From Megaustenia siamemsis (Eukaryota > Mollusca > Gastropoda > Stylommatophora > Ariophantidae): a stretch of 64,000 bases of DNA. The translations under genes were made by a program, and so were the position numbers. The stretch's first letter is position 1. Each line of letters starts with the position of its first letter. The stretch spans positions 58,435,103-58,499,102 of the forward strand of contig JAVIAB010000059.1 of the NCBI GenBank assembly GCA_032433765.1. Direction: 5' to 3'. Of this stretch, positions 3,301 through 64,000 are shown piece after piece. The notes under the pieces were generated by a model, which ran no database searches, was not told where the DNA came from, and was given only the letters and a program-made list of their open reading frames with translations.

Positions 3301-3464
3301 ATCAAGAACACACTTATTCAGATGAGTTATGAAGTGTAACTAAAGAACTGTGTGAATAAACGTCTGTACGAGACCTGGACGACGTCTTAAATCATCATAT
3401 AAGGTGTCGAACACAAGTGTTGTTCAGAACATTTGGATTTGCAGTTTCTGTGTTACGAGTTAAC
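3301..3464. other. Unassigned interval
   Basis: No coding region or known repeat is recognised here. Confidence 0.3.
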
Positions 3465-3803: not shown

Positions 3804-3954
3804 ATCATGTTGTGCTGAACTCAACCACAACGGGTGAATTGTAGCTCGTCACCCGGATTGTTTGGATTTACATATTATCTGCCCATTGTATATAATAATC
3901 GCATTGTGTTGCGCACTGACACACAATACATTATTAATAATTCATTTATATTTC

Positions 3955-7454: not shown

Positions 7455-7799
7455 ATAGAGCCCTATCACGCCACGTGACGTATAGGGAATATGGTGTTAG
7501 TGACTATAATTTTTACAGACTTTCGGCACATAATTTTTGGGGTAAGTAAAGTAAAGTACCCCCGTCACGCCAAGTGGCGTATAGGGAAATATGGTGTTAG
7601 TGACCCTATATTTTACAGACCTTCAGCACATGATTTTTGGGGTAATGTGGTCAGTATTACGCCCGTGTCGCTTTACTTTCCCTGAAAAAAATCCGGTAAC
7701 CATTAAGGCTGGGTGAACCCGGAAGCCGTCGATTGGGATCGAACCCTACCTCTTGTCCTTTGTAGTCCAGTTCACTAACCACTGAGCTATCGCCGCTCC
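7455..7799 (-). repeat. SINE S1, one full copy plus a partial 3' duplicate
   Basis: A full reverse S1 copy occupies 7546-7799 and ends with the tRNA-like head near 7799. A second, partial S1 3' end (7455-7545) is fused in front of it at 'gtaagtaaagtaaagtacc'. Either two insertions at the same tail or a tail duplication explains this. Confidence 0.8.
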
Positions 7800-8960
7800 A
7801 TATAACAGCATCTTTGGGACAGTATTAACAATGTACAGACATTAAACACAATCTTTGCGACAGTATTAACAATGTACAGACATTAAACACAATCTTTGGG
7901 ATAGTATTAACAATGTACAGACATTAAACAACATCTTTGGGATAGTATTAACAATGTACAGACATTAAACAAAATCTTTGGAATAGTATTAACAATGTAC
8001 AGACATTAAACAAAATCTTTGGGATAGTATTAACAATGTACAGACATTAAACACAATCTTTGCGACAGTATTAACAATGTACAGACATTAAACAAAATCT
8101 TTGGGACAGTATTAACAATGTACAGACATTAACAACATCTTTGGGACAGTATTAACAATGTACAGACATTAAACAAAATCTTTGGGACAGTATTAACAAT
8201 GTACAGACATTAAACAACATCTTTGAGACAGCATTAACAAAGTACAGACATTAAACAACATCTTTGGGACAGTATTAACAATGTACAGACATTAAACAAC
8301 ATCTTTGGGACAGTATTAACAATGTACAGACATTAAACAACATCTTTGGGACAGTATTAACAATGTACAGACATTAAACAACATCTTTGGGATAGTATTA
8401 ACAATGTACAGACATTAAACAACATCTTTGGGACAGTATTAACAATGTACAGACATTAAACAACATCTTTGGGATAGTATTAACAATGTACAGACATTAA
8501 ACAACATCTTTGGGATAGTATTAACAATGTACAGACATTAAACAACATCTTTGGGACAGCATTAACAAAGTACAGACATTAAACATCTTTGGGACAGTAT
8601 TAACAATGTACAGACATTAAACAACATCTTTGGGACAGTATTAACAATGTACAGACATTAAACAACATCTTTGGGACAGTATTAACAATGTACAGGCATT
8701 AAACAACATCTTTGGGATAGTATTAACAATGTACAGACATTAAACAACATCTTTGGGACAGTATTAACAATGTACAGACATTAAACAACATCTTTGGGAT
8801 AATATTAACAATGTACAGACATTAAACAACATCTTTGGGATAGTATTAACAATGTACAGACATTAAACAACATCTTTGGGATAGTATTAACAATGTACAG
8901 ACATTAAACAACATATTTGGGATAGTATTAACAATGTACAGACATTAAACAACATCTTTG
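7800..8960. repeat. Minisatellite, 39-40 bp unit
   Basis: About 29 tandem units containing 'gtattaacaatgtacagac' and 'atctttgggacag'. Units are highly alike, with single-base variants (gggaca/gggata) scattered through the array, suggesting recent expansion. Confidence 0.97.
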
Positions 8961-15727: not shown

Positions 15728-16175
15728 TAGCTGTTTTAGCACGAAAAAGATGGGTCGATGGAATATTAGAAGCACTATGAAACATAACAGCAACAGAGGC
15801 AAACAGAAGAGCAAAAGACCGCAGATTATATCTCCCCTCGACGCTGAAAGGCAGATGAGGAAGGAAAGAAGAAGATTTTCGTGGATGTCTGATAGGTATA
15901 CACGAGCCAGCAAGCGTCTGCAGCAATGAGAATATTAATCAATTGATGTTTTTATCAAAACAAAACACAACGAGCCTTTAATAAACGTTGCAAGAACACC
16001 AGATCCAAGGGCCGATCATGAAAAAGATGGACTGACGAAATATTAGAAACACTAGAAAACATAACAACAGGAGAAGTCAACAAAAAAGCAAAAGACCGCA
16101 ATTTATATCTCCCCTCGACGCTGAAAGGCAAATGAAGAAGGAAAGAAGAAGAAGTTTGGATGAGTTTTAACCTAT
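15728..16175 (+). mobile_element. Two LINE family H 3' ends
   Basis: Two similar segments (about 15728-15905 and 15960-16175), each reading 'DGILEALWNITATEANRRA' or 'DEILETLENITTGEVNKKA' and then 'AKDRxLYLPSTLKGK'. The basic-W-D pattern is that of LINE C-termini. Related copies at 32145 and 35240 are inverted. Confidence 0.7.
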
Positions 16176-47523: not shown

Positions 47524-47750
47524 GGATTTTGAGGCCATTTTAAAAGATACAACAGCCTACTAAAAGTAATCCTGGAGGGGAAAATACAAGGTAAAAGAGG
47601 CAGAGGCAGACCAAGACTAACATGGATGAGTAACATTAAAAGATGGACAAATCAGCCTATGACAACCTGCACCTTCAAAGCAAGAGACAGAGCAGAATGG
47701 CGCTCCAGGGTAGCCAACCTTCGTTGCGGAGATGGCACTCGATGATGATG
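47524..47750 (+). mobile_element. LINE family B 3' end
   Basis: Matches the last 210 bases of 59511-60712, including 'GRGRPRLTW' coding sequence and a gatgatgatgat tail. Confidence 0.85.
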
Positions 47751-47869
47751 ATAGTAATCATGGTTCATTTTTGTTTAAACAGAGTGATGTGAAAATGCAG
47801 AGTTTATCATTTTTGTGACTATTCTCATTTGTATGTTTTCAAATTATTGTACATACCGAAACCCTTGGG

Positions 47870-48822
47870 CCCATCTGATATGTCTCCTCATGGGAAACAT
47901 AAAATACCAGAACTTAAGGAACATATAACAGAAATCATGAAAAAAAGGCACTCAATCAGACACAGAAAGAAAACACGTAGTAGAAAAACACATACACGAT
48001 ACCTACCCATATGACTCTTGGTCCCACATATACACAGATGGCTCTGCAACAAATGCCACCAGAAATGGAGGGGTAGGTGTGTTCTTGACGCTGAACAATC
48101 AAGACGAGATCACCAAGTCAATAGCTACTGGGAAATTCTCAAACAACTTTAAAGCAGAAACTGAGGCCCTCAAAGATGCTGCAACACTGGCTACTCAACA
48201 CAAAAATAACATGCACAATAAATTGGTGATTCTGACTGATGCCCTGTCAGTGCTATCAGCTTTAAAAAGCCCCAAGAACAATGAACTAGATGACTTGAGA
48301 ACAACCCTGGACCAACTATGCAATAACATCCAGAGAGTAGTCATTCGGTGGATACCATCACACTGTAATATACACGGTAACGAACGCGCAGACAAATTAG
48401 CTAAAGAGGGACAGAGATTACCACAAGAGAACCACCCGCTCAGTTATGATGAGGCCAAATCCATCCTCAAAGGTCAGTACCATGAAAAATGGAAACGAGA
48501 ACACCCAAAGCATAACAAGAGGGACAGATACCATCAATTATCAAGGAGAGATCAAGTCATCATACTTCGCCTACGCACTGGCCACAATAGAATGAGAAAT
48601 CACATGTTCACCAAATTCAAAATAGGTACAACCAGCCTATGCCACTGTACACTGGACAATATGACTACAAAACATGTTCTACAGGATTGCCCCCAGTACA
48701 CAGACCTGAGAAGAGCAATGTGGTCCTCACCCACCTTCCTGGAAGAGAAACTATATGGGGCAATCGATTCACTTAAACAGACAGCTGACTTCATGAGAGA
48801 GTCTGGAATCCTAGTATGATTG
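47870..48822 (+). mobile_element. LINE family G RNase H domain, mostly open
   Basis: The frame from about 48013 to the stop at 48817-48819 encodes a complete RNase H: 'HIYTDGSATNATRNGGVGV' (first catalytic Asp), 'KAETEALKDAATLAT' (Glu), 'LVILTDALSVLSAL' (Asp) and 'IRWIPSHCNIHGNERADKLA' (His/Asn/Asp). It is followed by 'LRTGHNRMRNHMFTKFKIG' and a Cys/His motif 'CHCTLDNMTTKHVLQDCP' common at the end of such LINE proteins. A frame change at about 48010 separates it from the linker (47829-48014). The RT is not present. All catalytic residues appear kept. Confidence 0.88.
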
Positions 48823-48889
48823 AGTCTTGATCGCAGAGAGAGAGAGAAATTATTGTACAGCTGCTATGTGACTACGTTGATTAACTTTT

Positions 48890-51850
48890 TATTACCTCAC
48901 TTCAATACAGCACTTCAAAACATCACTTCAATACATCACTTTAATACATCACTTCAATACATCACTTCAATACGTCACTTTAATACATCACTTTAAAAGC
49001 TCAATGTAATACCTTACTTTAATACCTCACTTTAATGCCTCACTTTAATGCCTAACTGTAATGTCTCACTTTAAAAGCTCACTTTAATGCCTCACTTTAA
49101 AAGCTCGATTTAATCATCACCATCATCAAGTACCGGGCCTAGTGGCGTAGGTGATCATGTCTCTCCACAACTTTCGATCTCGGCAGCTATTTATCATTTC
49201 TGTTGTTGACCTTCTGCCAAGCCATTCTCTTAAGTTTCCTGTTATTTTTTCTCTTTGCTTCCCTCTATCTCTTCGTCCCTCAATTTTTCCATTTGTTACA
49301 ATACATTCAAGTTGTTCTCTTCTCATTACATGGCCAAAAAATGATGCTTGTCTCTTCCTAACATTTGGCGATTCATGATTGTACAAAGAAATTACGACGG
49401 TGGTTTTCTGTAGCCTTCCGTCGGTTTGTTTACGGTTGACTCCGCTAGCCTTTGACTAAATAGTATCACCCACAAAGCAGTGGGGTTGTTTTACTTCGGG
49501 GTACCCTCCCTTAGCCTTTTACTCTCCCGAGCTTTAATTTAATAGCTCTAAATTTAATACCTCACTTGAATACCTCACTTGAATACCTCACTTAAATGCC
49601 TCACTTTAATGCCTCACTTTAAAAGCTCAATTTAATACCTAACTTTAAAGTCTCACTTTAATGCCTCACTTTAAAAGCTCAATTTAATACCTCACTTTAA
49701 TACCTCACTTTAATACCTCACTTTAAAGCCTCACTTTAAAAGCTCACTTTAATACCTCACTTTAATGCCTCACATTAAAAGCTCAATTTAATGCCTCACT
49801 TTAATGCCTCATTTTAAAAGCTCCCTTTAATGCCTCACTTTAAAAGCTCAAATTAATACCTCACTATAATGCTTCGCTTTAAAAGCTAAATTTAATACCT
49901 CACTTTAATGTCTCACTTGAATAACACACTTTAAAAGTTCACTTTAAAGTCTCACTTTAAAGCCTCACTTTAATGCCTCACTTTAATGTCTCACTTTAAT
50001 GCCTCACTTTAATGTCTCACTTAATGTCTCACTTTAATGTCTCACTTTAATGTCTCACTTAATGTCTCACTTTAATGTCTCACTTTAATGTCTCACTTTA
50101 ATGTCTCACTTTAATGTCTCACTTGAATAACACACTTTAAAAGTTCACTTTAAAGCCTCACTTTAAAGCCTCACTTTAATGTCTCACTTTAATGTATCAC
50201 TTAAATGCCTCACTTTAATGCCTCACTTTAATGTCTCACTTTAATGTCTCACTTTAATGTCTCACTTTAATGTCTCACTTTAATGCCTCACTTTAATGCC
50301 TCACTTTAATGTCTCACTTTAATGTCTCTCTTTAATGCCTCATTTTAATGTCTCACTTAATGTCTCTCTTTAATGTCTCACTTCAATGCCTCACTTAATG
50401 TCTCACTTTAAAAACTCACTTTAATGTCTCACTTTAAAAACTCACTTTAATGCCTCACTTTAATGTCTCACTTTAATGTCTCACTTTAATGTCTCACTTT
50501 AATGCCTCACTTTAATGCCTCACTTTAATGCCTCACTTTAATGTCTCACTTTAATGTCTCACTTTAATGCCTCACTTTAATGCCTCACTTTAATGCCTCA
50601 CTTAATGTCTCACTTTAAAAACTCACTTTAATGTCTCACTTTAAAAACTCACTTTAATGCCTCACTTTAATGTCTCACTTTAATGTCTCACTTTAATGTC
50701 TCACTTTAATGCCTCACTTTAATGCCTCACTTTAATGTCTCACTTTAATGTCTCACTTTAATGTCTCACTTTAATGCCTCACTTTAATGCCTCACTTTAA
50801 TGTCTCACTTTAAAAACTCACTTTAATGTCTCACTTTAATGCCTCACTTTAATGTCTCACTTTAAAAACTCACTTTAATGCCTCACTTTAATGCCTCACT
50901 TTAATGCCTCACTTTAATGTCTCACTTTAAAAACTCACTTTAATGTCTCACTTTAATGCCTCACTTTAATGTCTCACTTTAAAAACTCACTTTAATGTCT
51001 CACTTTAATGCCTCACTTTAATGTCTCACTTTAAAAACTCACTTTAATGCCTCACTTTAATGTCTCTCTTTAATGCCGCATTTTAATGTCTCACTTAATG
51101 TCTCACTTTAATGTCTCACTTTAATGTCTCACTTTAATGTCTCACTTTAATGTCTCACTTTAATACCTCACTTTAATATCTCACTTTAATGTCTCACTTT
51201 AATACCTCACTTTTATGTCTAACTTTAATGCCTCACTTTAATACCTGACTTTAATGTCTCACCTTTAATGTCTACCTTTTATAAGTTCAATTTAATGCCT
51301 CACTTTAAAGGCCCAATTTAATGCCTCACTTTAATGCTTCACTTTAAAAGCTCAATTTAATACCTCACTTTAATGCCTCACTTTAATGCCTTACTTTAAT
51401 ACATTACTTGAATGTCTCACTTTAATACCTCACTTTAATGCCTCACTTTAATACCTTACTTTAATACCTCACCTTAATACCTTACTTTAATACCTCTCTT
51501 TAATGCCTCACTTTAATACCTTACTTTAATGCCTCATTGTAATATATCACTTCAATACCTCACTTTAATACCTTACTTCAATAACTCCCTGTAATACCTC
51601 ACTTCAGTGCCTCACTTTAATACCTCACTTCAGTGTTTCACTTTAAATTCAGTGCCTCACTCTTATACCTCACTTCAGTGCCTCACTTTAATACCTCACT
51701 TCAGTGCCTCACTTTAATATCTCACTTCAATACCCCCACTTTAACGCTTCACTTCACAACATAAATTTAATACCTCACATTAATACCTCGGTTCAACACC
51801 TCTCACGAATACCGCAATTCAGTATCTCACTTTACTACTCACTTAAAGCT
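48890..51850. repeat. 13-bp satellite (TCACTTTAATGCC), about 2.9 kb
   Basis: Long tandem array of tcactttaatgcc and variants (tcactttaatgtc, tcactttaaaagc, tcactttaatacc). Blocks of 'actttaaaaactc' recur every 80-120 bases between 50400 and 51050, giving a higher-order pattern. The edges are degenerate. It is interrupted at 49115-49545 by a LINE A derivative. Confidence 0.97.
49115..49545 (-). mobile_element. Internally deleted LINE family A: leader fused to 3' end
   Basis: Minus strand: leader of about 170 bases from 'aagctcgggagagtaaaagg' to 'caatcatgaatcgcca', then directly the last 260 bases from 'gttaggaagagacaag' to the tail. All RT sequence is missing. The remaining frame reads 'VRKRQASFFGHVMRREQLE' to 'GRRDRGKQREKITGN'. 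Short direct repeats atttaat flank it in satellite DNA. Confidence 0.85.
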
Positions 51851-52140
51851 CTGGCGTCAGTGAACACCTACGACGACATCAGTCAACGACTAACAGGCGA
51901 CTGTTTACGACAGAATTAGCGACGAACTACTGATCAAGACCCTAATTCACCTCCTCGCGGCAGTCACAGATAAAGGCTAATTAGTCTGACCAATCAGAAT
52001 AGAGACCGATATTAAAGGCAAACCGCTACCCAAAAATTACATTATACTTGTCTGGTGTGTTGGGCTGAAAGGATATCTATATCTTTCTGCAAACGACAAC
52101 ACAGCACAGATGCGCCCACTTCTATCTCTTCTTCTTCGTC

Positions 52141-52460: not shown

Positions 52461-53080
52461 ACTCACACCTACTGGCTGAAAGCGAAAAATGTATGCTTTC
52501 TTCCTCCTTATTTGCTCTACACTAGCTTCTCTTCGTCTTTTGCCCTTAACAGGATGTTCGACGTTGATGCGCTTTGTTGTCCTTTGCAACGAGTTTGAAT
52601 AGTATAGACTTTTCGGCACATTAGTAGTAGAGGTGCATCTTTACGACGGACAAATGTTAGGCTCCCCGAACATTTACCCCTATATAAATAGTCTAACAGA
52701 ACATTTTTTTCCTTATATGAAAGTCTACCTGAACATGTCCAGAATTTTTCCTTATATGAGAGTCTATCCAAACATTAAAAAAAATATATATTTAGTAAAC
52801 CGGAGGGTCGTGGTGACCTCTCGTTGACCTCTCGTGGTGGGGGAAATGGGGTGACCTCTCGGGGTGGGGGAAATGGGGTGTGTGACTTGTTGTGAATGGG
52901 ACGCATGAAAGTAGGGTGGGCGGGTGACATAGCTTTCACATTCTTTCTTTGTACATTATCTCAAAACAGTCTTATTCAAGAAAACTTTTAATGTATACCT
53001 ACAATTTCGTTCCATCAAAAGGTAACAACTTACTCAGTACTTGTCCGTTACACATACGCAGGCCTAGGTATGTACACGAA
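52461..53080. other. Mostly unassigned; short local repeats
   Basis: A unit of about 44 bp ('ttccttatatgaaagtctac' type) occurs about three times at 52665-52775, and 'gggggaaatggggtg' twice at 52840-52880. No coding region. It may include the outer left end of the Polinton-like element, but no terminal repeat or TSD could be fixed. Confidence 0.4.
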
Positions 53081-53406
53081 GGCGCGTTAATGACTTTAGC
53101 ACTTGCCCGCCAAAATCGTAACCAAAACCTACAGAAACACACGAGGGCCGCATTAATGACTTTAGCAGGAACGCTATCAAAGACCCGTTTCTCTGTGAAA
53201 TTTCTCGCTTGAGTAACTTAAACCGCTCTAGCCGTCTACGTTGACTGCGCTAATGAGTTTAATACCTGAATGGCAGACGGACATTAAAGGGTAAATTGAG
53301 CGCTTGCTGCCCGCGAGACTGGCTGATGTGGCGCGCTAATGAGTTTAACACCTGAACGGGTTTGGCCGCGAGACTGGGGACCGTTAATGAGTTTAACATC
53401 TGAACT
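53081..53406 (+). promoter_or_regulatory. Iterated TAATGA-TTTA motif cluster
   Basis: Five copies of a motif like gcgctaatgagtttaacacc lie at about 53081, 53147, 53246, 53331 and 53384. The first two have 'taatgactttagc', the last three 'taatgagtttaa' followed by 'cctgaa' or 'tctgaa'. They stand 80-400 bases before a TATA box, a layout expected of an enhancer or replication control region. The function is inferred. Confidence 0.6.
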
Positions 53407-53488
53407 TGGCTGTTTTAAAGTGACACGTTTGGGGAAATTAATTGGCTTGTAATGGAAAGTAATTGCTTATACAGAGAGTCTTTAACTG

Positions 53489-53593
53489 TATATAAGTATA
53501 TTCAAGCCGCAAGTCAAATATTCTCACAACATTCTCTGAAGCAGTTTCAACAAGTGTCTTGTGTACAAGTTAATTTCTTTACAAACCGTAAGT
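53489..53593 (+). promoter_or_regulatory. TATA box and first splice donor
   Basis: TATATAAG at 53489-53496, then about 90 bases without an ATG, then a strong donor, ccGTAAGTA (GT at 53588). This looks like a promoter with a short untranslated first exon reading to the right. The matching acceptor was not identified. Confidence 0.5.
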
Positions 53594-53914
53594 AGAAACT
53601 TATTTTTATCATAGATTCTATAATGTTGATTATGTTAATACAACAAAATAGGAATAGTCTAAAATAATTTAAAATTAAAACAAATTAAAACAAGTCAAAT
53701 AAAACAAACAAATATGTTGCTTTTCTATTTAATTGTATTTTCACAACAAAACATAATTTATTTTAATACATCAACGTAGACAAAACATGTTACACATTCA
53801 AATATTTATAATTGAACAATGATGACTTAAATAGTACAAATATCAATACAACACAACTGAAAAGGTATACATATAACAACATAATAATTTATATAGGCTA
53901 AATAATAAAAAATG
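53594..53914. other. AT-rich non-coding interval
   Basis: Very AT-rich. No open frame or repeat is recognised. Confidence 0.4.
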
Positions 53915-54055
53915 TCACTGTTCGGCTGCAGAATTTATTAATTTTACTCGTCTGGGCTTCCTTGCTTTGTTGGAACTGTCTGTTTGAGTTAAATGTCTAT
54001 CAAACACTGGTGAATAGGAAGGTTGATTAGCGTTCAAAACACAACCACCCTCCAT
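53915..54055 (-). CDS. Small basic ORF beside the PC4-like gene
   Basis: 46-residue open frame with ATG at 54055, just past the stop of the PC4-like gene (54068) on the same strand. It has a Lys/Arg cluster (KARKPRRVKL) near the C-terminus that could bind nucleic acid or direct nuclear import. No family is recognised. The minus-strand order suggests a shared transcript with the PC4-like gene. Confidence 0.4.
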   Translation of the reverse strand: MEGGCVLNANQPSYSPVFDRHLTQTDSSNKARKPRRVKLINSAAEQ

Positions 54056-54067
54056 TTTGACAAATCC

Positions 54068-54444
54068 TTAATCAAAGACGGCATAGGTAACTGGCGACTG
54101 TGTGGAAATTGAATCAATCGGGGCATCCATGTCTCTAGGATCTTTCGGTTGGTTATCAAGAGGCGCGGTGTAGTTGAGGTTATCATAATCTGATAAAATG
54201 TCATCTCGCATATCAACTAGCGTGGTAAATTCATCTCTCGAGAGTGTTATTCCAGTTCTTGTAGGAAACCATCACCATGATATGTCCTTATGTTTAGCAA
54301 TGGTCTGTTATAAAAAGCAGAAACTTAGACTGCCTTAACACCATCTTTTGATAATGGAATTATATTCTCATTTTCACGAGACATTAAAATACGTTGACCA
54401 CAGACATCAAATGAAGCTGGCATATTAACGCTAGACGACTCCAT
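54068..54444 (-). pseudogene. PC4-like (p15 coactivator fold) gene, left arm
   Basis: ATG at 54444 on the minus strand, opening with MESSSVNMPASFDV, then a stop after 'DGVKAV'. Beyond it the reading 'NIRTYHGDGF' and, after a small frame change near 54255, 'LSRDEFTTLVDMRDDILSDY' follow. The pattern (IR-Y, a loop, then G-I-LS-DEF-L) is that of the single-strand DNA-binding PC4/p15 domain, found in several large DNA transposons and viruses. The C-terminal tail is acidic and ends at 54068. The early stop is shared with the right-arm copy. Most of this gene lies in the inverted arm. Confidence 0.6.
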
Positions 54445-54757
54445 TCTAAAAAACACACCACCATGTAGTAGGGCTCTGACTTTCTGTGTGTGTAGTAGCA
54501 CTGAGAACGGCTGCCCTTTATACGCTGTAACAAGGGGGCGTGGTCCGTCTATTTATAGTAACTAATGCAATACGTTATTGGTTGTGTTGAGACATGTTCA
54601 GAGAGCCGCCATATACGATGAGTCACGTGAAGTTTGCTCCACGAAGCCGATGCATCCATGGCGTCATCAACCGATAAATGATACGGTCGTTAATGTGTTG
54701 TCTCGTTGAAAATGGCATGAGAATTCTGTTAATGCTCGCACCACAACACTTTGAAAT
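54246..54757 (-). repeat. Left inverted arm
   Basis: About 512 bases that are the reverse complement of 60828-61349 with scattered differences and small indels. It contains the TATA elements, leader and 5' half of the PC4-like gene. At its inner end it holds sequence equivalent to the last 45 codons of the protease gene on the other side. Confidence 0.92.
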
Positions 54758-54880
54758 ATAGACTACAGAAATCAAGATTTTTCTGTGGTAACGCTGAATG
54801 AATGGATGTTTAGTGAGTGAATACATTTAGTATTCATCATGAAAGTGGGACACTGGTTTACCTTAGAGGCTGTTTCCGGT

Positions 54881-55290
54881 CTAGACTTCCCCTCTGATTC
54901 TTCTGAGCTCCCCATCTAGACTATGTACTAAAGGGTCATCAGCCTTGTGTTTTTTACTTGGAGGTGAATGTTCTTCGTCTATCTTTCGTTGGTCGTTGTA
55001 GAAGAGGTCGATGGCGCAGTGGGTGATGTTGCTGATGGTGAAGTGGGTGTTGTAGCAGGTCTCGATGGTGAAGTCGTTGATGCAGATGGTACTTGTGTAG
55101 AATATTTTAGTCACATATGTCTGGCTAAAGAACCACGAGTCATATACGTGTGTTGACAAATGTCAAACACGTGTTGTATAAGCTGATTAGCATCACGGGT
55201 GTGCTCCAACAAACCTCTGCGCCATTTAAACGTCTTTGGACACAATGGGCACGGATGATCATCAGAAGCTGCATCGTTATGAGAAATCAT
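54881..55290 (-). pseudogene. C2H2 zinc-finger protein of the element
   Basis: ATG at 55290, right after a splice-acceptor-like 'tatttttctacag' on the minus strand. The first 60 codons hold two C2H2-type fingers: 'CPLCPKTFKWRRGLLEHTRD' and 'CQHTYMTRGSLARHM'. The second lacks a clean full spacing. After a stop at 55111 a Ser/Thr/Pro-rich stretch continues in a second frame to about 54985. A third frame gives 'PPSKKHKADDPL', a likely nuclear localisation signal, ending at 54881. Two frame breaks make this a remnant. A DNA-binding regulatory role is inferred. Related finger proteins occur in Polinton-like elements. Confidence 0.6.
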
Positions 55291-55816
55291 CTGTAGAAAA
55301 ATAAATAACCCTTTGTCAACAATATTTACCATTTCTAGTTTAAATACATTAAGAAAATTAACCATCAACACTTAAAATACCTACTTTTATACATCCAACA
55401 AAATATGAAAAACGAAGGAATACTATATTCAACAATTCTTATCATAACTATATCATAACCACTTTAAACACATTAACATTATTAAAAAATGAATAACCTT
55501 TTATCGATAAGCTTGAACATATTTTAAGAGAAAACAAAAATATTCAAACTTACAGTGTAAAATATAGTCTCAATCCTCTAGACTGAACAGTAGTATGACC
55601 TTCCTTGAATCAACCAAACTTATAAGATGAAATCTCTCATGGGTCTAGTTTAAATATTAACTGGTATCAGATCTATAAATTAACAAATTAGGGACTGAGT
55701 ATGACGGACATCTGAACTAACCAATCTGAAAAGAGCATTAGCATGGGAGGCGGAGCAAAGAAATGACTGACAGGTGGATTTACCAATCAGAGAGAAGCAT
55801 TAAGTGAATACTGACC
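55291..55816. other. AT-rich spacer within the element
   Basis: No open frame. It could be the intron or leader of the minus-strand zinc-finger gene, since an acceptor stands at 55291-55305. Confidence 0.4.
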
Positions 55817-56219
55817 TCATGTAGTGGCTGTCGTAGCAGCGGTGGGGCCAGGTAATACTGCTGGGGGTGGTGAGTTACATGAAATTGAACTGACCCTTAG
55901 TGCAATTCCAGTCTCTTTTGCTTCGTTTATGTCACAAAGAACTGTGGAGGGTGGTACAGAGTTAACTCCTTCCCAATTGATGTATTCCTTTATTCTTTGG
56001 GTTATGTTTTCTGCACAAGAAAACCACATCCTCTTTCGTGAACTCATGATATAAAATATTATTTATTTGCGCGCTAAGGCGCTCCTCAAACTCTAGAAGA
56101 CACGAGTGAGGTAACTGGTTGTCATGTTTCACCTGACACCCTTTACATAAGTCGTATGGCTGACACTGTAAGATACACAACACCTTCTCAAATAAAAGGT
56201 ATGGTCTGTTAGATGCCAT
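55817..56219 (-). pseudogene. Cys-rich Polinton-associated protein
   Basis: ATG at 56219 (MASNRPYLLF). The exon starts just before, at 56230, after an acceptor-like 'ttcttgttttacag'. Residues 15-45 contain CILQCQPYDLCKGCQVKHD and then HSCL, a C-x3-C...C-x2-C...H-x-C arrangement that could bind zinc. I recall similar proteins beside packaging ATPases in animal Polinton-like elements. The frame ends at 55962. A second frame (55817-56047) overlaps and continues with 'YINWEGVNSVPPSTVLCDIN' and a Pro/Ala/Thr tail, so a single frameshift near 56010-56040 is likely. The function is unknown. Confidence 0.6.
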
Positions 56220-56338
56220 TTTACGGTGATCTGTAAAACAAGAAAACCACATCACATACATTTGGAAAGGGACAGAAAATGTAGTACATGATAAAAATAC
56301 TTTAAAAGTGATAATACCGAATCAAAGTGTCATTAGTG

Positions 56339-56958
56339 ATGATGGACCTTCGGTGGAAACACCCCTTCACTGCTCTGATAGCTAGTCCCACGGGATGTGG
56401 AAAAACAGTATTTGTTCAAAAGTTTCTACAGAATCTACAAGAGATAACTGCCCCCGTACACGAGGAAGTTATATGGTGTTACGAGGAATGGCAGCCAATT
56501 ATGAGACTATGGAGAAAGTGAGATTTATCGAGGGTCTACCAAATATCGATAACTTGGAAGCGGTAAAAAGAGAAGATTCGTCATTATCGACGACTTGATG
56601 TCAGAAACGGATGAGAGAGTAACAAAATTATTCATCAAAGGTAGCCATCACAGAGATATGAGTGTGATCTACATTCTACAAAACCTATTTGGAAAAAAAT
56701 AAGGAACATCGCACTGTAAGCCTCAATACCCATTATATAGTCCTTTTTAAGAACCCGAGAGACGGAAGTCAAATTACCAATCTGGCTAAGCAAATGTACC
56801 CGGGCCAAGTGGCGTACCTCCAAGACAGTTTTAAGGAAGCGACAGCGTCTCCCCACTGTTATTTGTTGGTTGGTCTTCGACAGGAAACATCGGATCATCT
56901 GAGGCTGAGAACAAAGATATTCCCAGGGGTTAGACAAATCGTCTACGTTCCAAAGTAA
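56339..56958 (+). pseudogene. A32/FtsK-type genome-packaging ATPase, frameshifted
   Basis: P-loop ATPase of the type that pumps DNA into the capsid of Polinton-like and related viruses. Walker A (ASPTGCGKT) is at residues 17-25 from the ATG at 56339. Walker B (FVIIDD) is at about 56579-56596. The sensor-like 'YILQNLF' follows, then 'NTHYIVLFKNPRD', 'LAKQMYPG' and 'LRLRTKIFPG', a conserved C-terminal block. These lie in different frames, with breaks near 56515, 56575 and 56690. The total of about 205 codons fits the family. An ORF start at 56327 would need GTG, so the ATGs at 56339 or 56342 are preferred. Adjacent genes follow closely on the same strand. Confidence 0.85.
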
Positions 56959-56962
56959 CAGA

Positions 56963-57287
56963 ATGATAGCTTCACTTAGACGACACTGTGAAATGTTGAA
57001 ATGTCTGCGCTCTGCCACGCCGAGTAGTTTTAGAGCTTTATTGAAAACGGCCTCCCCTGAACTCATTCGCTTCTTGTGTAAGTGTTGTCATAACATATTA
57101 AAAGGTAATGTTAGATTCACTCAGCAACAGAAGTGCGAGCTACGTCGACACAAGAACAAGCTGAGACTCCTCACTAAAATGAAACCGAATTCTTAAGCAG
57201 AGGAAAGCGATTCTACAAACTGGTGGATTCATAGGTACTTTGATCAAACCTATATTAAGTGTTCTCGGGGGTGTATTAGTTCTTTAA
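56963..57287 (+). pseudogene. Small basic 'GGF' protein of the element
   Basis: ATG at 56963, five bases after the ATPase stop. It opens with a helical, Cys-containing region ('ELIRFLCKCCHNILKGNV'), then a strongly basic stretch ('QQKCELRRHKNKLRLL'), and after a frame change near 57195 a hydrophobic Gly-rich end ('ILQTGGFIGTLIKPIL') stopping at 57285-57287. The layout (Cys, basic stretch, GGF, hydrophobic end) is one I recall for small proteins between ATPase and capsid genes in animal Polinton-like elements. A virion or core role is a guess. Confidence 0.62.
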
Positions 57288-57289
57288 AC

Positions 57290-57442
57290 ATGGCCAAAAA
57301 TGATCTTGATGGATCCTCGGTTATTAGAGGGTTTGAAACAGACTTTCACGTATACCCCACTGTGGAAATCTTTTTAGCCAACGAACACGGAAAAACCATC
57401 TCATTTCCCAGCGGAACGTCGGTGCTAACGGTACACTTTTGA
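57290..57442 (+). CDS. 50-residue ORF of unknown function
   Basis: ATG at 57290, two bases after the previous stop. It reads MAKNDLDGSSVIRGFETDFH, then a beta-strand-like end (TVEIFLANE, TSVLTVHF). It could be the start of a longer broken gene. No family is recognised. Confidence 0.4.
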   Translation: MAKNDLDGSSVIRGFETDFHVYPTVEIFLANEHGKTISFPSGTSVLTVHF

Positions 57443-57534
57443 ACGAGAAAACATCTTGAGCTGCCATAATGGTGAGACCCATTCAGCACAATCCCATGCT
57501 ATATTAAGACTTTTATTGCTGTCAGGCAGGTGAT

Positions 57535-57965
57535 GGGATGCCTGTGTTTATAGGTGATCGAAATCAACGAGGATGAGGAATCCGTAGTTTCTTTGGTGAA
57601 ATCGGGAGGGCAATTTTACCTGGCTAAAAACGGGGGGTTGGGGGGGGGGAGAGGAGCCTTACTCAGAGAAGTCGTGGGGACCGGTCTGCAGGTCGCCCAG
57701 GACGCATTAGCCGGCAGAAATATCGGCGACGCTTACAAATCACGAGCTAAGTTCTGCTGTTCTTAGACGGGGCCGTAGACCACCTGACTGGTAATAACCA
57801 ACCAGGAAGTGGTTTACAACGTCGAATCAGAAAGCGAGTCGGGAAGGCGGCACCTTCTATAGAAACTGTTACGAAGAGAATAAAACCAGCAGCTAGACAG
57901 TCCCGCCTTCATTCTACAACAAAGAGGAGGACGAAGTTCTCGGTACTAAAGGATATTTTCGATTA
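57535..57965 (+). pseudogene. Gly-rich/basic virion-type protein, broken
   Basis: Begins near ATG 57539 (MPVFIGDRNQRG), with a stop soon after. It then has 'IRSFFGEIGRAILP', a frame change at the G-run 57636-57650, 'VAQDALAGRNIGDAYKSRAK', and a Lys/Arg-rich tail ending at a TAA at 57963-57965. The order of a Gly-rich start, FF-x(4)-R-x(3)-P and a basic tail matches what I recall of the protein just upstream of F54H12.2-like capsid genes. Several stops show decay. Confidence 0.5.
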
Positions 57966-59271
57966 ATGATGTCTCTCGTTCACCCCAGGTCATGTGAATG
58001 TCTTCATTCTGGTTGGATTTACTTAGCATTCCACCGACTCAGACTGCTGTAGACTCGGGCCAATTTACTGAAATTCGACCTCTTGCCTCCTTAGCGCATC
58101 GAGCTCCCATCGAGTTTTTCATTTCTGGAAACACTGAAGAGTATCTAGATCTTTTCAACACGTTTTTGCATCTGCCGGCCATGATCACCCTCCCCAACGG
58201 TGAAAATTTACCGTTGGATGCCCAGGTAGGACCAGTCAACAATTATCTTCACAGTCTATTTTCTCAAGTCGACGTATCTCTGAATGACACATTGATTACA
58301 CCGTCTGAGAATACCTATAAATTTAGAGCAGTGTTCGAGACTACACTAAACTATGGGGAGGATGCGAAAACAGGGCACTTGACGGCCGCTCTATTCTACA
58401 AAGATACAGCAGGCCACCATGATGATATGCAGGATAACGAGGGATTAAAAATACGACGTGCTTTGATTTCGGGTAGTAAAGAGGTTGAAATGATGGGTCG
58501 TTTGCACTCTGATGTTTTTTGCAGGACCGTTACATGTTAAACAGAGTGGATGTAACGATCAAAATCACATCCTCTAAGGACGAGTTCAACATCATGGCTA
58601 AGGATAAGTCTGTTGATTATAAGAGTGTGATCACTTATGCTGCCCTCGTGGTCAGGAAAGCTAAGCTAAACCCAGCAATTTCTCTGGCCCACGAAAAGGC
58701 TCTTTTACGTGGGAATTCGCGGTACACTATCAAGCGGGTTGCCATCAAAACATTTGCCATTGGTAGCGGTATGTTTTCCCTCAACCAAGACAATTTATTC
58801 TTGTCTCAAAAGCCAACACGCATAGTAATAGGTCTGATTACCGCCAGTGCTTTTACTGGCGTTTATAACACTAACCCGTTCAATTTTCAACACTTTGGGT
58901 TGACTTATATGAACCTAACGATTGACGGGAGATGTGTTTCCGGAAAGCCCCTAACTATGGACTTCGAACGTAATCACTATGCGCGAGCCTTTTTTGGTAC
59001 AAATTTGGCTATGGGACTGATTGGTAGAGACGCTGGAAATGGTGTTGATTATCAACAGTTCAAAGACGGCTTTTGTCTATTAGGTTTAGACCTCTCCCCC
59101 AGTATGCTAGACGGATACCAGTTTAAGCTTGCCACAAGTAGATCCTTGTCGATAGTGCTCAAGTTCGCCACTCCCACAACAACTCCCCTACAAGTTATTG
59201 TCTACCCAGAGTTGGATTCAGTACTTGAGGTGTCCAATACACGACAGGTTCTAACAGACTACGCTATTTGA
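57966..59271 (+). pseudogene. F54H12.2-like putative capsid protein, frameshifted
   Basis: About 435 codons in three frames. It starts at ATG 57966/57969 (MSLVHPRSCECLHS), shifts near 58010 to 'LDLLSIPPTQTAVDSGQ', and shifts again near 58520 to 'VDVTIKITSSKDEFNIM', ending at 59269-59271. Conserved blocks are 'PLASLAHRAPIEFFISG', 'NNYLHSLFSQVDVSLND', 'NPFNFQHFGL', 'KPLTMDF' and 'FCLLGLDLSP'. Beta-rich alternation through both halves is compatible with jelly-roll domains. Proteins of this kind are usually labelled only as F54H12.2-like in animal genomes. Their place between packaging ATPase and protease argues for a capsid protein. This is an inference not tested here. It is the longest and best preserved gene of the element. 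Confidence 0.72.
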
Positions 59272-59277
59272 GAAAAT

Positions 59278-60962
59278 GAACACGGGGGATATTTACAATT
59301 TTTTTATGTCCGATGTTGCTCCCTTGTTAGTGTCCTCCCGCGAAACCACTTACCGCTCATCATCGACCCAATCAAGACTGCAGCCTTTATCATAAACACC
59401 GACCCTACCCACAAAACAGGTGAACACTGGGTGGCCCTCTTTTACAACGGCTTTGGACAAATAAAGTATTTCGATGCCCACGGTTTACCCCCGGGCACAT
59501 TGATATTTTAGATCATTAGATGAGCAGCAATTTGGATTTAGGAAAAATAGCGGGACAAAAGAAGCCATATTCTGCATGAGAACATTAATCGAAAAATACA
59601 CAGAAGTAAACAAACAAATATATGCCTGCTTCATAGACTACACCAAAGCTTTTGATAGAGTACACCACAAACAACTTATAGAATGCCTAAAAGAGATACA
59701 TCTAGATGACATGGATATACGACTAATATGCAATCTATACTGGGAGCAAACAGAAATAATAAAATATAACAAAGAGTTCTCTACACCCATTGATATAAAA
59801 AGAGGAGTAAGACAAGGATGCATCCTATCACCAAGCTTGTTCAATCTATACACTGAGCAAATCTTTAAAAACATCATAGAGATGCCAGGCCTACAAATTA
59901 ATGGAAAGATAATCAATAACCTAAGATATGCTGACGATACTGTACTACTAGCAGAAAATCATAAAGACCTACAAGAATTACTTAATGAAATAAACACGAC
60001 AAGCAAAAAATATGGACTAGATATGAATATCAAAAAGACTAAAACTATGATCATAAACAAAGAAAATACTCAAAACCCACAAGTGGATATCAAAATTGAA
60101 GGAATAGACCTTGAGACAGTTCAGAACTATAACTACCTTGGACATACTATAACCAGTGATGGAAAATGTACAACTGAAATAAACAAAAGAATAGGAATGG
60201 CAAAAAGTAATTTTAATGTCATGAAGGACATACTAACATCAAAACAAATAACACCAGAGCTAAAACTAAGAATAGCAAAATGTTACATCTTCTCAATATT
60301 CCTATATGGTGCTGAAACATGGACATTAGACAAGAAAACAGAACAGAGAATTGAAGCCTTTGAAATGTGGATATATAGAAGAATAGGTAGAATTGGATGG
60401 AAGGAAAAGAAAACAAATGACAAAGTCTTAAAACAACTAAAAATGAAAAGAGAACTTCTGAACACAATTAGAACAAGACAAATGCGATTCTTAGGCCATG
60501 TTAAAAGACACAACAGCCTACTGAAAGTGATCCTGGAGGGGAAAATACAAGGTAAAAGAGGCAGAGGCAGACCAAGATTAACATGGACGAGTAACATCAA
60601 AAGATGGACAAATCAACCGATGACAACCTGCACCATCAAAGCAAGAGATAGAGCAAAATGGCGCTCCATGGTAGCCAACCTTCGTTGCGGAGACGGCACT
60701 CAATGATGATGACATTGATATTTTAAATTTTATCGACAGGAATTCACATGTTCCATTTGTATACAACCCACGAGTGTTACAAAAATTGTTTAGCTACACA
60801 CGTGGTCTACATTGTGTTTATTATATAATTTTAAAGTGTCGTAGTGCGAGCATTAACAGAATTCTCATGCCATTTTCAACGAGACAACATATTAACGACC
60901 GTATCATTTATCAGTTAATGGCGCCATGGATGCATCGGCTTCGTGGAACAAACTTCACGTGA
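59278..60962 (+). pseudogene. Adenain-like cysteine protease, split by a LINE
   Basis: Maturation protease of the adenovirus/Polinton type. ATG at 59278 (MNTGDIYNFF), a frame change near 59335, then 'FIINTDPTHKTGEHWVALF' with the catalytic His, 'KYFDAHG' with the Asp, interrupted after 'PPG' by LINE B (59511-60712). Past the insertion the frame resumes: 'NFIDRNSHVPFVYNPRVLQ' and 'RGLHCVYYIILKC', which holds the likely catalytic Cys, and ends at TGA 60960-60962. The last 45 codons are inside the right inverted arm. The His, Asp and Cys positions are all recognisable. Confidence 0.8.
59511..60712 (+). mobile_element. LINE family B, 5'-truncated, open frame intact
   Basis: 1202-bp insertion with the exact 13-bp duplication cattgatatttta at 59498-59510 and 60713-60725. 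An uninterrupted frame from 59513 to the stop at 60704-60706 (376 residues from the ATG at 59576) starts inside RT: 'CFIDYTKAFDRVHHKQLIE', 'RGVRQGCILSPSLFNLYTE', 'LRYADDTVLLAENHKDLQ' (catalytic), 'YLGHTITSDGKCTTEINKR', 'LYGAETWTLDKKTEQRIEA' and 'GKRGRGRPRLTWTSNIKRW'. The 3' end carries TGATGATGA and no poly(A). The intact frame marks a recent insertion. Confidence 0.95.
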
Positions 60963-61027
60963 CTCATCGTATATGGCGGCTCTCTGAACATGTCTCAACA
61001 CGTCCAATAACGTATTGTATTAGTTAC

Positions 61028-61086
61028 TATAAATAGACGGACCACACCGCCTTGTTACAGCGTATAAAGGGCAGCCGTTCTCAGTG
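61028..61086 (+). promoter_or_regulatory. Promoter of the PC4-like gene (right arm)
   Basis: TATAAATA at 61028-61035 and TATAAAGG at 61063-61070, then TCAGTG at 61081-61086, similar to an initiator, and a 55-base leader before ATG 61141. The same boxes occur inverted in the left arm. Confidence 0.5.
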
Positions 61087-61140
61087 CTACTACACACACA
61101 GAAAGTCAGAGCCCTGCTACTTAGTGGTGTGTTTTTTAGA

Positions 61141-61349
61141 ATGGAGTCGTCTAGCGTTAATATGCCAGCTTCATTTGATGTCTGTGATCAACGTATTTTC
61201 ATGTCTCGTTGAAATGAGAATATAATTCCATTATCAAAAGATGGTGTTAAGGCAGTCTAAGTTTCTGCTTTTCATAACAGACCATTGCTAAACATAAGGA
61301 CATATCGTGGTGAGAGTCTGCTTAAGTTTCCTACCAGAACTGGAATAAC
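61141..61349 (+). pseudogene. PC4-like gene, right arm, truncated
   Basis: ATG at 61141 opening with MESSSVNMPASFDV. A frame change gives an early TGA at 61210-61212. Then the same TAA after 'GVKAV' as in the left copy, then 'NIRTYRGE' and 'PTRTGIT', where PC4-type similarity ends because the sequence is replaced by minisatellite DNA. Confidence 0.6.
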
Positions 61350-61985
61350 CACTCCAAACAGTCAAGTAGACATATCCTACACGAATGTACCACCTCAAAC
61401 AGTCAAGTAGACATATCCAACAAGAATGTACCACTCCAAACAATCAAGTAGACATATCAAACAAGAATGTACCACTCCAAATAACCAAGTAGACATATCC
61501 TACACGAATGTACCACTCCAAACAATCAAGTAGACATATCCTACACGAATGTATCACCCCAAACAGTCAAGTAGACATGTCCAACAAGAATGTTCCACTC
61601 CAAACAGTCAAGTAGACATATCCAACAAGAATGTACCACTCCAAACAGTCAAGTAGACATATCCAACAAGAATGTACCAGCCCAAACAGTCAAGTAGACA
61701 TATCCAACAAGAATGTTCCACTCCAAACAATCAAGTAGACATATCCAACAAGAATGTACCACTCCAAACAATCAAGTAGACATATCCAACAAAAATGTAC
61801 CACTCCAAACAGTCAAGTAGACATATCCAGCAAGAATTCACCACCCCAAACAATCAAGTAGGCAAATCCAACAAGAATGTACCACTCCAAACAATCAAGT
61901 AGACATATCCAACAAAAATGTACCACCCCAAACAGTCAAGTAGACATATCCAACAAGAATGTTCCACTCCAAACAATCAAACAAT
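61350..61985. repeat. Minisatellite, 41-bp unit
   Basis: About 15 units of 'cagtcaagtagacatatcca' and 'acaagaatgtaccactcca'. The array ends in 'caatcaaacaataaaatgg', as does the single unit at 25893-25940. Confidence 0.96.
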
Positions 61986-62195
61986 AAAATGGGATCCCTC
62001 CTCACTGAAATAACACTGTACGACAAACTATAGGAACCAGCGTGTCCACTATGTAATCCTTCCTGGTGTAGAGGTATAGCGGAAATTAATCACTGGTAAT
62101 GAACCTCGTTGAATAATCATTCCTCTCTGGGTGCCCCAAATCTGCTCACACTGTTTATACACTGTATTTAACGTGTATGCTTAACTTTTCTTTTA

Positions 62196-62295: not shown

Positions 62296-63787
62296 ATGAC
62301 GCATTCAAATGTCATTCCAAAGAGGGCAGGTCTAAAGAAACCACCACTCCCAGTGGACAGGGGGTGGGCGTGGCTGATCATGCTCGGTGCTTTTGCCATT
62401 TTGATGTTGGGCTGGACATTTGGTCGGGCCTTATCGATTCTTCTTCCATACTTCCTATACCGATACCAAGCACCGGCTGCAGTGACTACTTTAGCTTTCG
62501 GAATCGCCGATATTTCTTGGGCTGTTATAAATATATTGATCCCCACAGTTCTATTGCCACGGTTCAGTGTCAGAAGTTTAGCTTTAGTCGGCTCTATCGC
62601 TCACACTCTGAGTGTTATTGCACTAGCTTATTCGCCAAATATAATTACGTTTAACTGCATCTTCGGAGTGATAGGAACTGCAGGTGGGCTCATGATAGTT
62701 ACATCTTTAATCCACCTTGGTCACTTCTTTAAGAAACGTTTATCCTTCGCCAGTGCGTTTGCTTCTGCAGGGGGCAGCGCGTCGGCTGTGTTCGTTCCCA
62801 TGTTGACTCAAAAACTGCTGGACATCTACGGTCTGCAGGGGACCTTGCTAATTATCGGGGGTATTAGTTTCAACTGTGTGGCTGCCTCCATGCTGCTAAG
62901 ACCGCTCTCGATGTATGATCATGTCGAGGATGTAAAGGAACCAAACGGAAATGTTTCGACAGACTTAGAATTGTCTGACTTCAGCAATATCCAGAAGCAG
63001 AATGGACATTTGACTTACAACGAATGTGATGAAGACGACATTAATGAAAAATCAAAGTTTATAGATAATGTCGACGATAAAAATAAACAAATAAAGGAGC
63101 TATGTTGTTCACGTGATCACAAAATAACAGGAAGAACTCACGTAGTCAATGACAACATAACACATGAGGAAATGGACGGCATTCAAGAAACAACAAAACT
63201 GATTTCTGAATATGAACCAGAACTATCAGATCAACATAAAAAGAATGACAACGAACTAAAAGAAATACCTTCCTTGTTTCCAGAGACAACATCAGATAAC
63301 ACAGACTGTAACGAAACAAGAAGTGACGACATAAACAATAAAAGCATTAATTTCTCCAGTAATGACGTTGCTGCTTCCAACTACCATGTCTGTTCTAATG
63401 GTAGCAGCAGTGAACATTTTCTTACAGCAAGTGGCTGTATACAAACATCTAGCAGCTCTCAGGAGCTTCAATCTACTTCTGACATTAACCCAGAGCTCTT
63501 CTCTGAAGAAAAACACAAACTATCGCTAGAGCACAACTTCAATCAGTCGTATCCAAGCAAAGAATCTAATATTGTAGTCAATGATGCTAATGCCCCAGCA
63601 GGCCTATGTCGGGGTATTCGTAAGATGAAAGAATATATTCGATCGTCTGTTCTCTTAAATCCAGTGGCACTGTTGTTGATCTTAGCCTGTGGGATCAGCA
63701 CCCAAGGAGGATCCTTGTACGTCCCCGTTTTAGGTCTGGAGAATGGACTTACCCCTGAGGAGGTGCCTTGGATGATAACTATTATTG
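62296..63787 (+). CDS. Monocarboxylate-transporter-like protein, copy 3, coding exon 1 (intact)
   Basis: SLC16/MFS-type carrier. The ATG at 62296 lies in the same context as copy 2 (tgaataataatg). The signature 'PVDRGWAWLIMLG' is followed by six hydrophobic segments to about residue 205, with 'GHFFKKRLSFASAFASAGGS' between helices 4 and 5. An acidic and Asn/Lys/Ser-rich loop of about 240 residues follows, then 'VLLNPVALLLILACGIS' (helix 7). The exon is 1492 nt and exits in phase 1 at gtgagg (63788). No stop or frameshift is present. The expected second exon with helices 8-12 is beyond the window. Among the three copies this one is most likely functional. The substrate is unknown. Confidence 0.92.
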
Positions 63788-64000
63788 GTGAGGGATATTT
63801 GTCTGTGTATATGTGTATGTGCGTGCAAATGTGTGTGTGCATGTTTATACGTGTGTGTGCATGTGTGTTCATGTGTGTGTATGTACGTACGCTATGTGTG
63901 TGGTATTTTGCACATTTATTGCAAATTTACTGCAGATTTATTGCTAAGCTAAATACGTTGACTTAATTGTAAACTTGCATGTTCTTCAAATTTTCACACC
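63788..64000 (+). other. Start of the copy 3 intron
   Basis: GT-rich low-complexity sequence (63800-63895), then AT-rich sequence similar to the first part of the copy 2 intron (29430-29490). The frame reading through the donor into it is not coding. Confidence 0.7.

What the first reader, a model, noticed from the sequence alone, without database searches (positions are those of the whole stretch)
53081..61349. Endogenous Polinton/adintovirus-like element with a full morphogenesis set but no visible polymerase or integrase
Seen: packaging ATPase (Walker A and B), a F54H12.2-like putative capsid protein, an adenain-like protease, small basic proteins, a zinc-finger protein, a Cys-rich protein and PC4-like genes, all within about 7 kb between inverted arms. 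Established: Polintons and adintoviruses normally add a protein-primed polymerase B and often a retroviral-type integrase. Inference: this is either a lineage that lacks them, a satellite-like element using a helper, or a copy that lost one end by recombination. A compact element with capsid genes and duplicated regulatory genes in its arms is not a layout I know.
Basis: partly seen in the sequence, partly recalled or inferred. Interest (0 to 1): 0.86.

Follow-up and report, generated by a model that had tools for sequence, protein, structure and literature searches.

The report
Broken Maverick virus with mirrored end
This is a dead copy of a Maverick (Polinton), a virus-like transposon with many relatives in the same genome: it has no DNA polymerase or integrase because this copy was damaged, one end being replaced by a mirror image of the other, although a sister group of copies does seem to spread without a polymerase of its own.

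Summary
The puzzle, no polymerase or integrase, has an ordinary answer. Full copies of about 14-15 kb elsewhere in this genome carry both (5 of 8 copies read). In the window copy (a) the 'zinc-finger gene' is the first ~140 residues of the family PolB, the rest being gone; (b) integrase and most of the penton fell to one internal deletion (junction 57359/57360); (c) the inverted arms are not the family's native terminal repeats: the left arm is an inverted copy of the family's right end (protease tail, PC4, terminus), standing where PolB's body and the native left end were. The element runs from 52,623 to about 61,354; its right terminus is lost to a satellite, and a retroelement fragment splits the protease.

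The parts
52623..53406 (-). Outer left end: AGTAGT terminus at 52623 (preceded by cacatt); stretches at 52678-52880 match the family terminal repeat; 52881-53406 mostly unmatched to the element
   Evidence: several pieces of 18-100 columns at 70-100% identity to positions 2319-2737 of the family right end, inverted
53407..54757 (-). Mirror copy (reverse complement) of the family right end: protease tail, PC4 and beyond
   Evidence: inverted match to right-end positions 359-1745, 79.5-80.9% over 1426-1429 columns in 4 of 4 PolB-bearing copies compared (c41, c73, c59b, c123)
53915..54444 (-). PC4-like gene, left (mirror) copy, broken
   Evidence: intact homologue in L024 passes Pfam PC4 (31.7 vs 25 bits)
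54758..54925 (.). Junction interval between mirror arm and PolB remnant; matches neither side
54926..55325 (-). N-terminus of PolB with zinc fingers (about 140 residues), rest of PolB missing
   Evidence: E=1.2e-28
55820..56261 (-). Cys-rich protein, in two broken pieces (one 190-aa frame in copies c41 and c50)
56342..56958 (+). Packaging ATPase, frame-broken
56963..57283 (+). Small basic protein (my label 'PY')
   Evidence: 1.4e-14 to L003
57292..57360 (+). Start of the next gene (my label 'PX'), cut off by the deletion
57359..57463 (+). C-terminal end of penton, after the deletion of 2.4 kb (rest of 'PX', integrase, membrane protein, most of penton)
   Evidence: family -3560 joined to -1162 in 5 of 5 copies compared; (0.015-0.2 to distant pentons)
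57496..57966 (+). Minor basic protein (my label 'PW')
   Evidence: (1.7e-10)
57967..59271 (+). Major capsid protein, frame-broken
   Evidence: fold of intact homologue:
59276..59510 (+). Adenain-like protease, first part, frame-broken
59511..60711 (+). Inserted reverse-transcriptase fragment (not part of the virus), 14-bp direct repeats at 59497-59510 and 60712-60725
   Evidence: a 234-nt stretch at 47525-47758 is 91% alike
60712..60962 (+). Adenain-like protease, last part; the right arm begins inside it
60824..61354 (+). Right arm: the family's native right end (protease tail, start of PC4), broken off
   Evidence: 60712-61354 to c41 right-end positions 243-910, 86%
61349..61990 (.). 41-bp satellite array in place of the lost right terminus

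Best explanation
The element is a dead, rearranged copy of a Maverick/Polinton family that has many copies in this genome. Full copies are about 14-15 kb, with AGTAGT...ACTACT ends, 6-bp target duplications and the order [terminus] PolB(-), Cys-rich(-), ATPase, small basic protein, a further gene, integrase, membrane protein, penton, minor protein, capsid, protease, PC4 [terminus]. In the window copy the native left end and nearly all of PolB are replaced by an inverted copy of the right end (shown by homology and orientation; that this arose by copying from the opposite end, through template switching in replication or repair of a break, is inferred). A separate deletion removed integrase and most of penton (shown). 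A retroelement fragment split the protease (shown) and the right terminus was lost to a satellite (shown). With its PolB, integrase and several frames broken it cannot move by itself (inferred).
For: Capsid search of the same genome: 3592 first-look candidates, 150 scored, all 150 of those match. Of 8 copies read in pieces, 5 have PolB + integrase + penton, 1 has PolB and a different deletion, 2 of a sister group have integrase but no PolB. Terminal repeats of the 6 PolB-bearing copies are 365-547 columns long and hold neither PC4 nor protease. Window 53407-54757 is the inverted family right end in 4 of 4 PolB-bearing copies compared. The c41 PolB frame matches the window in residues 4-140 only and nowhere else in the 64 kb at E<=0.1. 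Deletion junction the same in 5 of 5 copies compared. AGTAGT ends and perfect 6-bp target duplications in 7 of 7 copies checked, as passages of PMC8097293 state for vertebrate Mavericks.
Against: The right terminus is gone, so the window copy's own target duplication cannot be tested. The mirror junction is known only to 54758-54925. 52881-53406 of the left arm is mostly unmatched to the element, and two stretches there match the right flank of copy c41, which I did not explain. Divergence from the family is uneven (about 72% identity at the PolB remnant, 88-92% around ATPase, 83-86% in the capsid and protease part). The window copy is an outlier (next best 86% in the capsid piece) and a genome search for its junction did not complete, so a second copy with the same structure is neither seen nor excluded.
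Confidence: 0.93

Rival explanations
1. The window copy is a normal member of a PolB-less, integrase-less subfamily whose native terminal repeats carry PC4, and which depends on a helper.
For: A PolB-less sister group with PC4 at the left exists in this genome.
Against: The window copy keeps a PolB N-terminus and the Cys-rich gene, which were not found in the sister copies read. Its capsid piece is 84-86% identical to the PolB-bearing group and 80-81% to the sister group. The arms begin inside the protease gene. The integrase loss is a deletion scar between remnants of two genes. PC4 at the left in 0 of 6 PolB-bearing copies.
Confidence: 0.03
2. The left arm is an assembly or sequencing artefact (an inverted chimera).
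For: Inverted copies of one end are a known kind of artefact (recalled); no reads were available here.
Against: The arms differ at 23 of 519 aligned bases and have 12 gap columns, and the left arm reaches about 1.8 kb further out than the surviving right arm, down to an AGTAGT terminus; an artefact would copy the neighbour exactly.
Confidence: 0.02
3. Same rearranged copy, but the mirror end formed during virus replication before insertion, so that the genome inserted here already had two right ends.
For: The left arm ends in a proper AGTAGT terminus; three head-to-head pairs of capsid hits hint at further mirror forms (centres not read).
Against: Both arms share an in-frame stop in PC4 which the open PC4 frames of c41 and c47 lack, so the arm was copied, or evened out with its partner, after PC4 had broken.
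Confidence: 0.4

Closest known systems
Maverick/Polinton elements of animals
   Same: The gene set of the full copies, AGT-type ends and 6-bp target duplications (passages of PMC4028283 and PMC8097293). Passages of PMC8097293 also report that 96% of vertebrate copies are eroded.
   Different: The window copy lacks the PolB body, integrase and most of penton, and has two right ends.
Adintoviruses and other 'meldviruses' (PMC11071296, section 16 and passages)
   Same: Adenovirus-class virion genes; that paper reports genomes with such genes that lack recognisable PolB and integrase.
   Different: There the loss is stated for virus genomes; here the window copy lost both by damage, and the sister group keeps integrase. 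No direct sequence comparison with adintovirus references was made.
L001, contig QGON01000029.1 (binned as an Escarpia laminata endosymbiont)
   Same: Same gene block with PolB, integrase and penton in line.
   Different: PolB lies on the same strand as the ATPase; in the window family it is on the opposite strand.
Mirror-image replacement of one terminus in poxviruses (recalled, not looked up)
   Same: One end replaced by an inverted copy of the other.
   Different: Mechanism here is not shown.

Membership tests
Maverick/Polinton | Double-jelly-roll major capsid protein | tested here: met
   Window pieces match homologues; intact homologue P0001 models at pLDDT 81.5 and matches iridovirus 1.4e-16, Sputnik 1.9e-14, mavirus 5.2e-13 by Foldseek
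Maverick/Polinton | Packaging ATPase and adenain-like protease | tested here: met
   As broken pieces:
Maverick/Polinton | Protein-primed DNA polymerase B | tested here: not met
   Window copy: first ~140 residues only. Met in 6 of 8 copies of the same genome
Maverick/Polinton | Retroviral-type integrase | tested here: not met
   Window copy: deleted. Present in 7 of 8 copies read
Maverick/Polinton | Penton protein | tested here: inconclusive
   Window copy: C-terminal remnant only. Present in 7 of 8 copies read
Maverick/Polinton | AGT-type terminal inverted repeats with 6-bp target duplication | tested here: inconclusive
   Window copy: left end only, right end lost. Met in 7 of 7 copies checked
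Adintovirus | PolB with OTU-like domain, adintovirus-type hexon, integrase with chromodomain (definition in PMC11071296) | not tested
   Only the L001 relative was seen to have rve plus chromodomain; no adintovirus reference was compared
Helper-dependent satellite (sister group, not the window copy) | No PolB of its own | tested here: met
   PolB in 0 of 22 right sides (c47, c100: 8 kb; L033-L052: 4 kb) and 0 of 6 left sides (c47, c100: 10 kb; L053-L056: 1.2 kb only) out of 42 rows at 80-81%
Helper-dependent satellite (sister group, not the window copy) | Copied by the polymerase of a helper | not testable with these tools

The most novel reading that the evidence does not exclude
The same genome holds a compact Maverick lineage (10.3 kb in copy c47) with PC4, ATPase, integrase, penton, capsid and protease genes but no DNA polymerase, which multiplied beside a full-length PolB-bearing relative with the same AGTAGT ends: a satellite Maverick that borrows a polymerase. 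The window copy, whose PolB end was overwritten by a mirror image of its PC4 end, shows the kind of accident that can found such a lineage, since in the sister group too PC4 stands at the left, on the minus strand, where PolB should be.
Probability: 0.5. Interest if true: 0.6.

Novelty: new member of a known kind. Interest (0 to 1): 0.36.

Why it matters
For the window copy: it shows how a Maverick can look like a polymerase-free virus through ordinary rearrangements, so absence of a gene in a single endogenous copy has to be checked against other copies of the same genome. For the sister group: if it really lives without PolB, animals carry Maverick satellites beside possible helpers, and helper dependence among Mavericks would become testable in one host.

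Tried and rejected
Profile libraries: Pfam and PHROGs did not recognise the capsid or penton; what they gave for the element was P-loop ATPase hits, Peptidase_C5, a zinc finger and PC4, mostly below the curated cut-offs. A capsid profile against PDB sequences found nothing convincing (a capsid chain only at E=0.74), so a model was folded and compared. IMG/VR scans with the capsid and PolB found no relative in 5 of 5 scans. The one GTDB scan gave L001-L003.

Rejected: the Dna2_Rift hit of the arm frame (E=0.003, below cut-off), which runs through the leader before the ATG; PC4 explains the gene. Rejected: a PolB fragment at 15994-16101 suggested by weak hits of distant PolBs (E about 0.05-0.2); the c41 PolB frame gave no hit there at E<=0.1. 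Rejected: the arms as native terminal repeats.

Results against or outside the reading: c59b has lost integrase as well, by another deletion; neither c47 nor c100, the two sister copies read over 10 kb, has every gene intact (integrase broken in c100, protease hit in two overlapping frames in c47); L043 carries the last 20 residues of PC4 on its right side; no ORF X ('PX') hit was seen in c47 or c100.

Not achieved: genome-wide counts of PolB and of the PC4-left arrangement, and a search for the window's junctions; the genome search answered once. The copies read were picked from the top of that list, not at random: 6 of 104 rows at 84-86% and, of 42 rows at 80-81%, 22 right sides and 6 left sides. 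One search scored 150 of 3592 candidates, so row counts are lower bounds.

Literature searches. In their listings I saw no title or abstract about a PolB-less, integrase-bearing Maverick beside its relative. Seen: PMC11071296 outline, section 16, passages; PMC11071308 outline and abstract; PMC4028283, PMC8097293, PMC6431247 passages. Starrett et al. 2021 was not held and not read.
Full report
What was checked. The window lies in a 2.59-Gb assembly of 155 contigs (G000:C59:58435103-58499102, + strand), eukaryotic and probably an animal's (inference). The finding claims an element with virion genes but no polymerase or integrase between inverted arms. The arms are real: 54242-54760 and 60824-61354 align over 531 columns, 496 identical, 12 with gaps. 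Between them lie broken frames.

Identity of the genes. The C-terminal capsid frame (250 aa) has 77 homologues at E<=1e-3 among 575 candidates, the best 67% identical; one is named 'uncharacterized protein F54H12.2-like [Pomacea canaliculata]'. A model of the intact homologue P0001 (mean pLDDT 81.5) matches double-jelly-roll capsids: iridovirus 1.4e-16, PBCV-1, Sputnik 1.9e-14, mavirus 5.2e-13. Three contigs of named records carry relatives. L001 shows PolB, ATPase, a small basic protein, a further gene, integrase (rve 3.5e-13, chromodomain 3.2e-08), a membrane protein, penton, a minor protein, capsid and protease in that order. tblastn of these proteins on the window finds ATPase (4e-39), small basic protein (1.4e-14 with L003's), minor protein (1.7e-10), capsid (3e-89) and protease (1e-8 and 2e-4), in the same order; integrase queries gave nothing in the element better than E 5.6, and penton only a weak C-terminal match at 57308-57463 (0.015-0.2). 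My labels PX, PY and PW are not those of PMC4028283, where PY is the capsid and PX the penton (passages).

Other copies in the genome. The capsid piece gave 3592 first-look candidates; 150 were scored and all 150 match. By my count of that table 1 row is the window itself, 104 are 84-86% identical to it, 3 are 82% and 42 are 80-81%. Many have open frames of 436 or about 491 aa. I read 8 copies in separate pieces, picked from the list and not at random. Five (c123, c73, c116, c50, c41) have PolB and a Cys-rich gene on the minus strand, then ATPase, small basic protein, further gene, integrase, membrane protein, penton, minor protein, capsid, protease and PC4 on the plus strand. A sixth (c59b) has PolB but a deletion from ATPase to the minor protein. 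Two (c100, c47) have integrase and penton but no PolB in the 10 kb left and 8 kb right of the capsid piece. In c41 the PolB frame is open for at least 1360 aa, from its ATG to the edge of the piece. Terminal repeats of the six PolB-bearing copies measure 365-547 columns. From the coordinates the five full copies are about 14-15 kb (c41 14.7 kb). All 7 copies whose ends I checked (c41, c59b, c73, c123, c50, c116, c47; c100 was not checked) begin AGTAGT, end ACTACT and have a perfect 6-bp target duplication, the features that passages of PMC8097293 give for vertebrate Mavericks.

Why the window copy lacks polymerase. Against 120 distant PolBs it gave E 9.9e-5 at best; with the c41 PolB frame the match is E=1.2e-28, residues 4 to 140, at 55325-54926 on the minus strand, with no hit to later residues anywhere in the 64 kb at E<=0.1. 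Left of it lies the reverse complement of the family's right end: 53407-54757 matches positions 359 to about 1745 right of the capsid piece, inverted, at 79.5-80.9% over 1426-1429 columns in c41, c73, c59b and c123. 52678-52880 matches pieces of the terminal repeat, and an AGTAGT stands at 52623. In the six PolB-bearing copies PC4 lies only at the right and inside of the terminal repeat. So the arms of the window are two right ends. The switch lies between 54757 and 54926; that interval matches neither side. The arms are closer to each other (23 mismatches in 519 aligned bases, 4.4%) than to the family (about 14% right, 20% left), so the copying belongs to this copy or its own branch. Both arms share an in-frame stop in PC4 where the PC4 frames of c41 and c47 are open: the arm was copied, or was last evened out with its partner, after PC4 had broken. 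That leans towards formation in the chromosome but does not prove it. Unexplained: two stretches of the left arm (52915-53264, 53411-53820) also match the right flank of copy c41, beyond its terminus.

Why it lacks integrase. Window 56901-57360 follows the family up to -3560 and 57359-58000 resumes at -1162, in 5 of 5 copies compared, with a 2-bp overlap. The missing 2.4 kb holds most of the gene after the small basic protein, integrase, membrane protein and most of penton. Identity is 90-92% before the junction and 83-84% after it.

Later damage. A 1.2-kb reverse-transcriptase fragment (RVT_1, 7.2e-34) sits in the protease between 14-bp direct repeats. The right arm stops at about 61354 in a 41-bp satellite, so the right terminus and any target duplication are lost.

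The sister group. c47 and c100 are 98.3% identical from ATPase to capsid and c47 is 85% identical to c41 there. c47 spans about 10.3 kb with terminal repeats of about 1.65 kb (95.6% identical) and a CACAGT target duplication. Its frames for PC4 (226 aa, minus strand, beside the ATPase), ATPase (205), integrase (356), penton (265) and minor protein (164) are open, but its protease is hit in two overlapping frames. c100 has the same PC4 and a 162-aa protease frame but a broken integrase. So neither is intact throughout. The PC4 protein passes Pfam's cut-off (31.7 against 25 bits). I read 20 further right sides (L033-L052, 4 kb each): 20 of 20 have a protease match and none has a PolB match at E<=1e-3; 19 of 20 have no PC4 match, L043 has its last 20 residues. 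I read 4 further left sides (L053-L056, 1.2 kb each): 4 of 4 are 94-99.9% identical to c47, have PC4 beside the ATPase and no PolB, zinc-finger or Cys-rich match. With c47 and c100 that is PolB in 0 of 22 right and 0 of 6 left sides, both sides having been read in 6 copies. In the 4 short left pieces PolB further out is excluded only by their likeness to c47. By blastn at E<=0.1 the terminal repeats of c41 and c47 share nothing, but both begin AGTAGTATA. I infer a lineage that multiplies with a polymerase supplied by others. Whether its left end arose by the same kind of mirror event as in the window copy is a suggestion: PC4 stands in the same orientation on the left, but the sequence beyond it no longer matches.

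How the family most likely works (established for Mavericks, from the literature and recall, not shown here): PolB copies the linear element from protein-primed ends, integrase inserts it with a 6-bp duplication, and ATPase, capsid, penton and protease make a particle. The window copy can no longer do this alone (inferred from its broken and missing genes).

Verdict. That makes the finding itself ordinary. The PolB-less sister group is the part worth a specialist's time.

Noticed in passing
G000: C8:47235118-47241508, C154:9923266-9930808, C124:74211170-74215918: Three pairs of capsid hits with only 3-6 kb between them, each head to head (minus, then plus) in the table.
   Followed up: no
L022-L025, L033-L056: Sister group of Mavericks with integrase and virion genes but no PolB, PC4 at the left on the minus strand (described in the report).
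   Followed up: partly
L021 (right flank of copy c41, 3239-3807 and 7545-7995 right of the capsid piece): Two stretches outside that copy's terminus match window 52915-53264 and 53411-53820 in direct orientation; perhaps fragments of another copy or a repeat within the window's left arm.
   Followed up: no
L003 2559-3077, minus strand: Beside the ATPase of this contig lies a 172-aa frame that looks to me like a TATA-binding protein (by eye; no search run).
   Followed up: no
L002 4819-5529 and 7589-8566: Two broken integrase-like stretches in a contig binned as a Bathymodiolus symbiont; no PolB match in the 21 kb held.
   Followed up: partly
window about 48,800-52,000: A 13-bp tandem array with strong GC skew left of the element.
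   Followed up: no
window 62296-63966: A 556-aa frame with MFS_1 similarity (2.8e-07, just below the curated cut-off) right of the satellite, probably a host exon.
   Followed up: no
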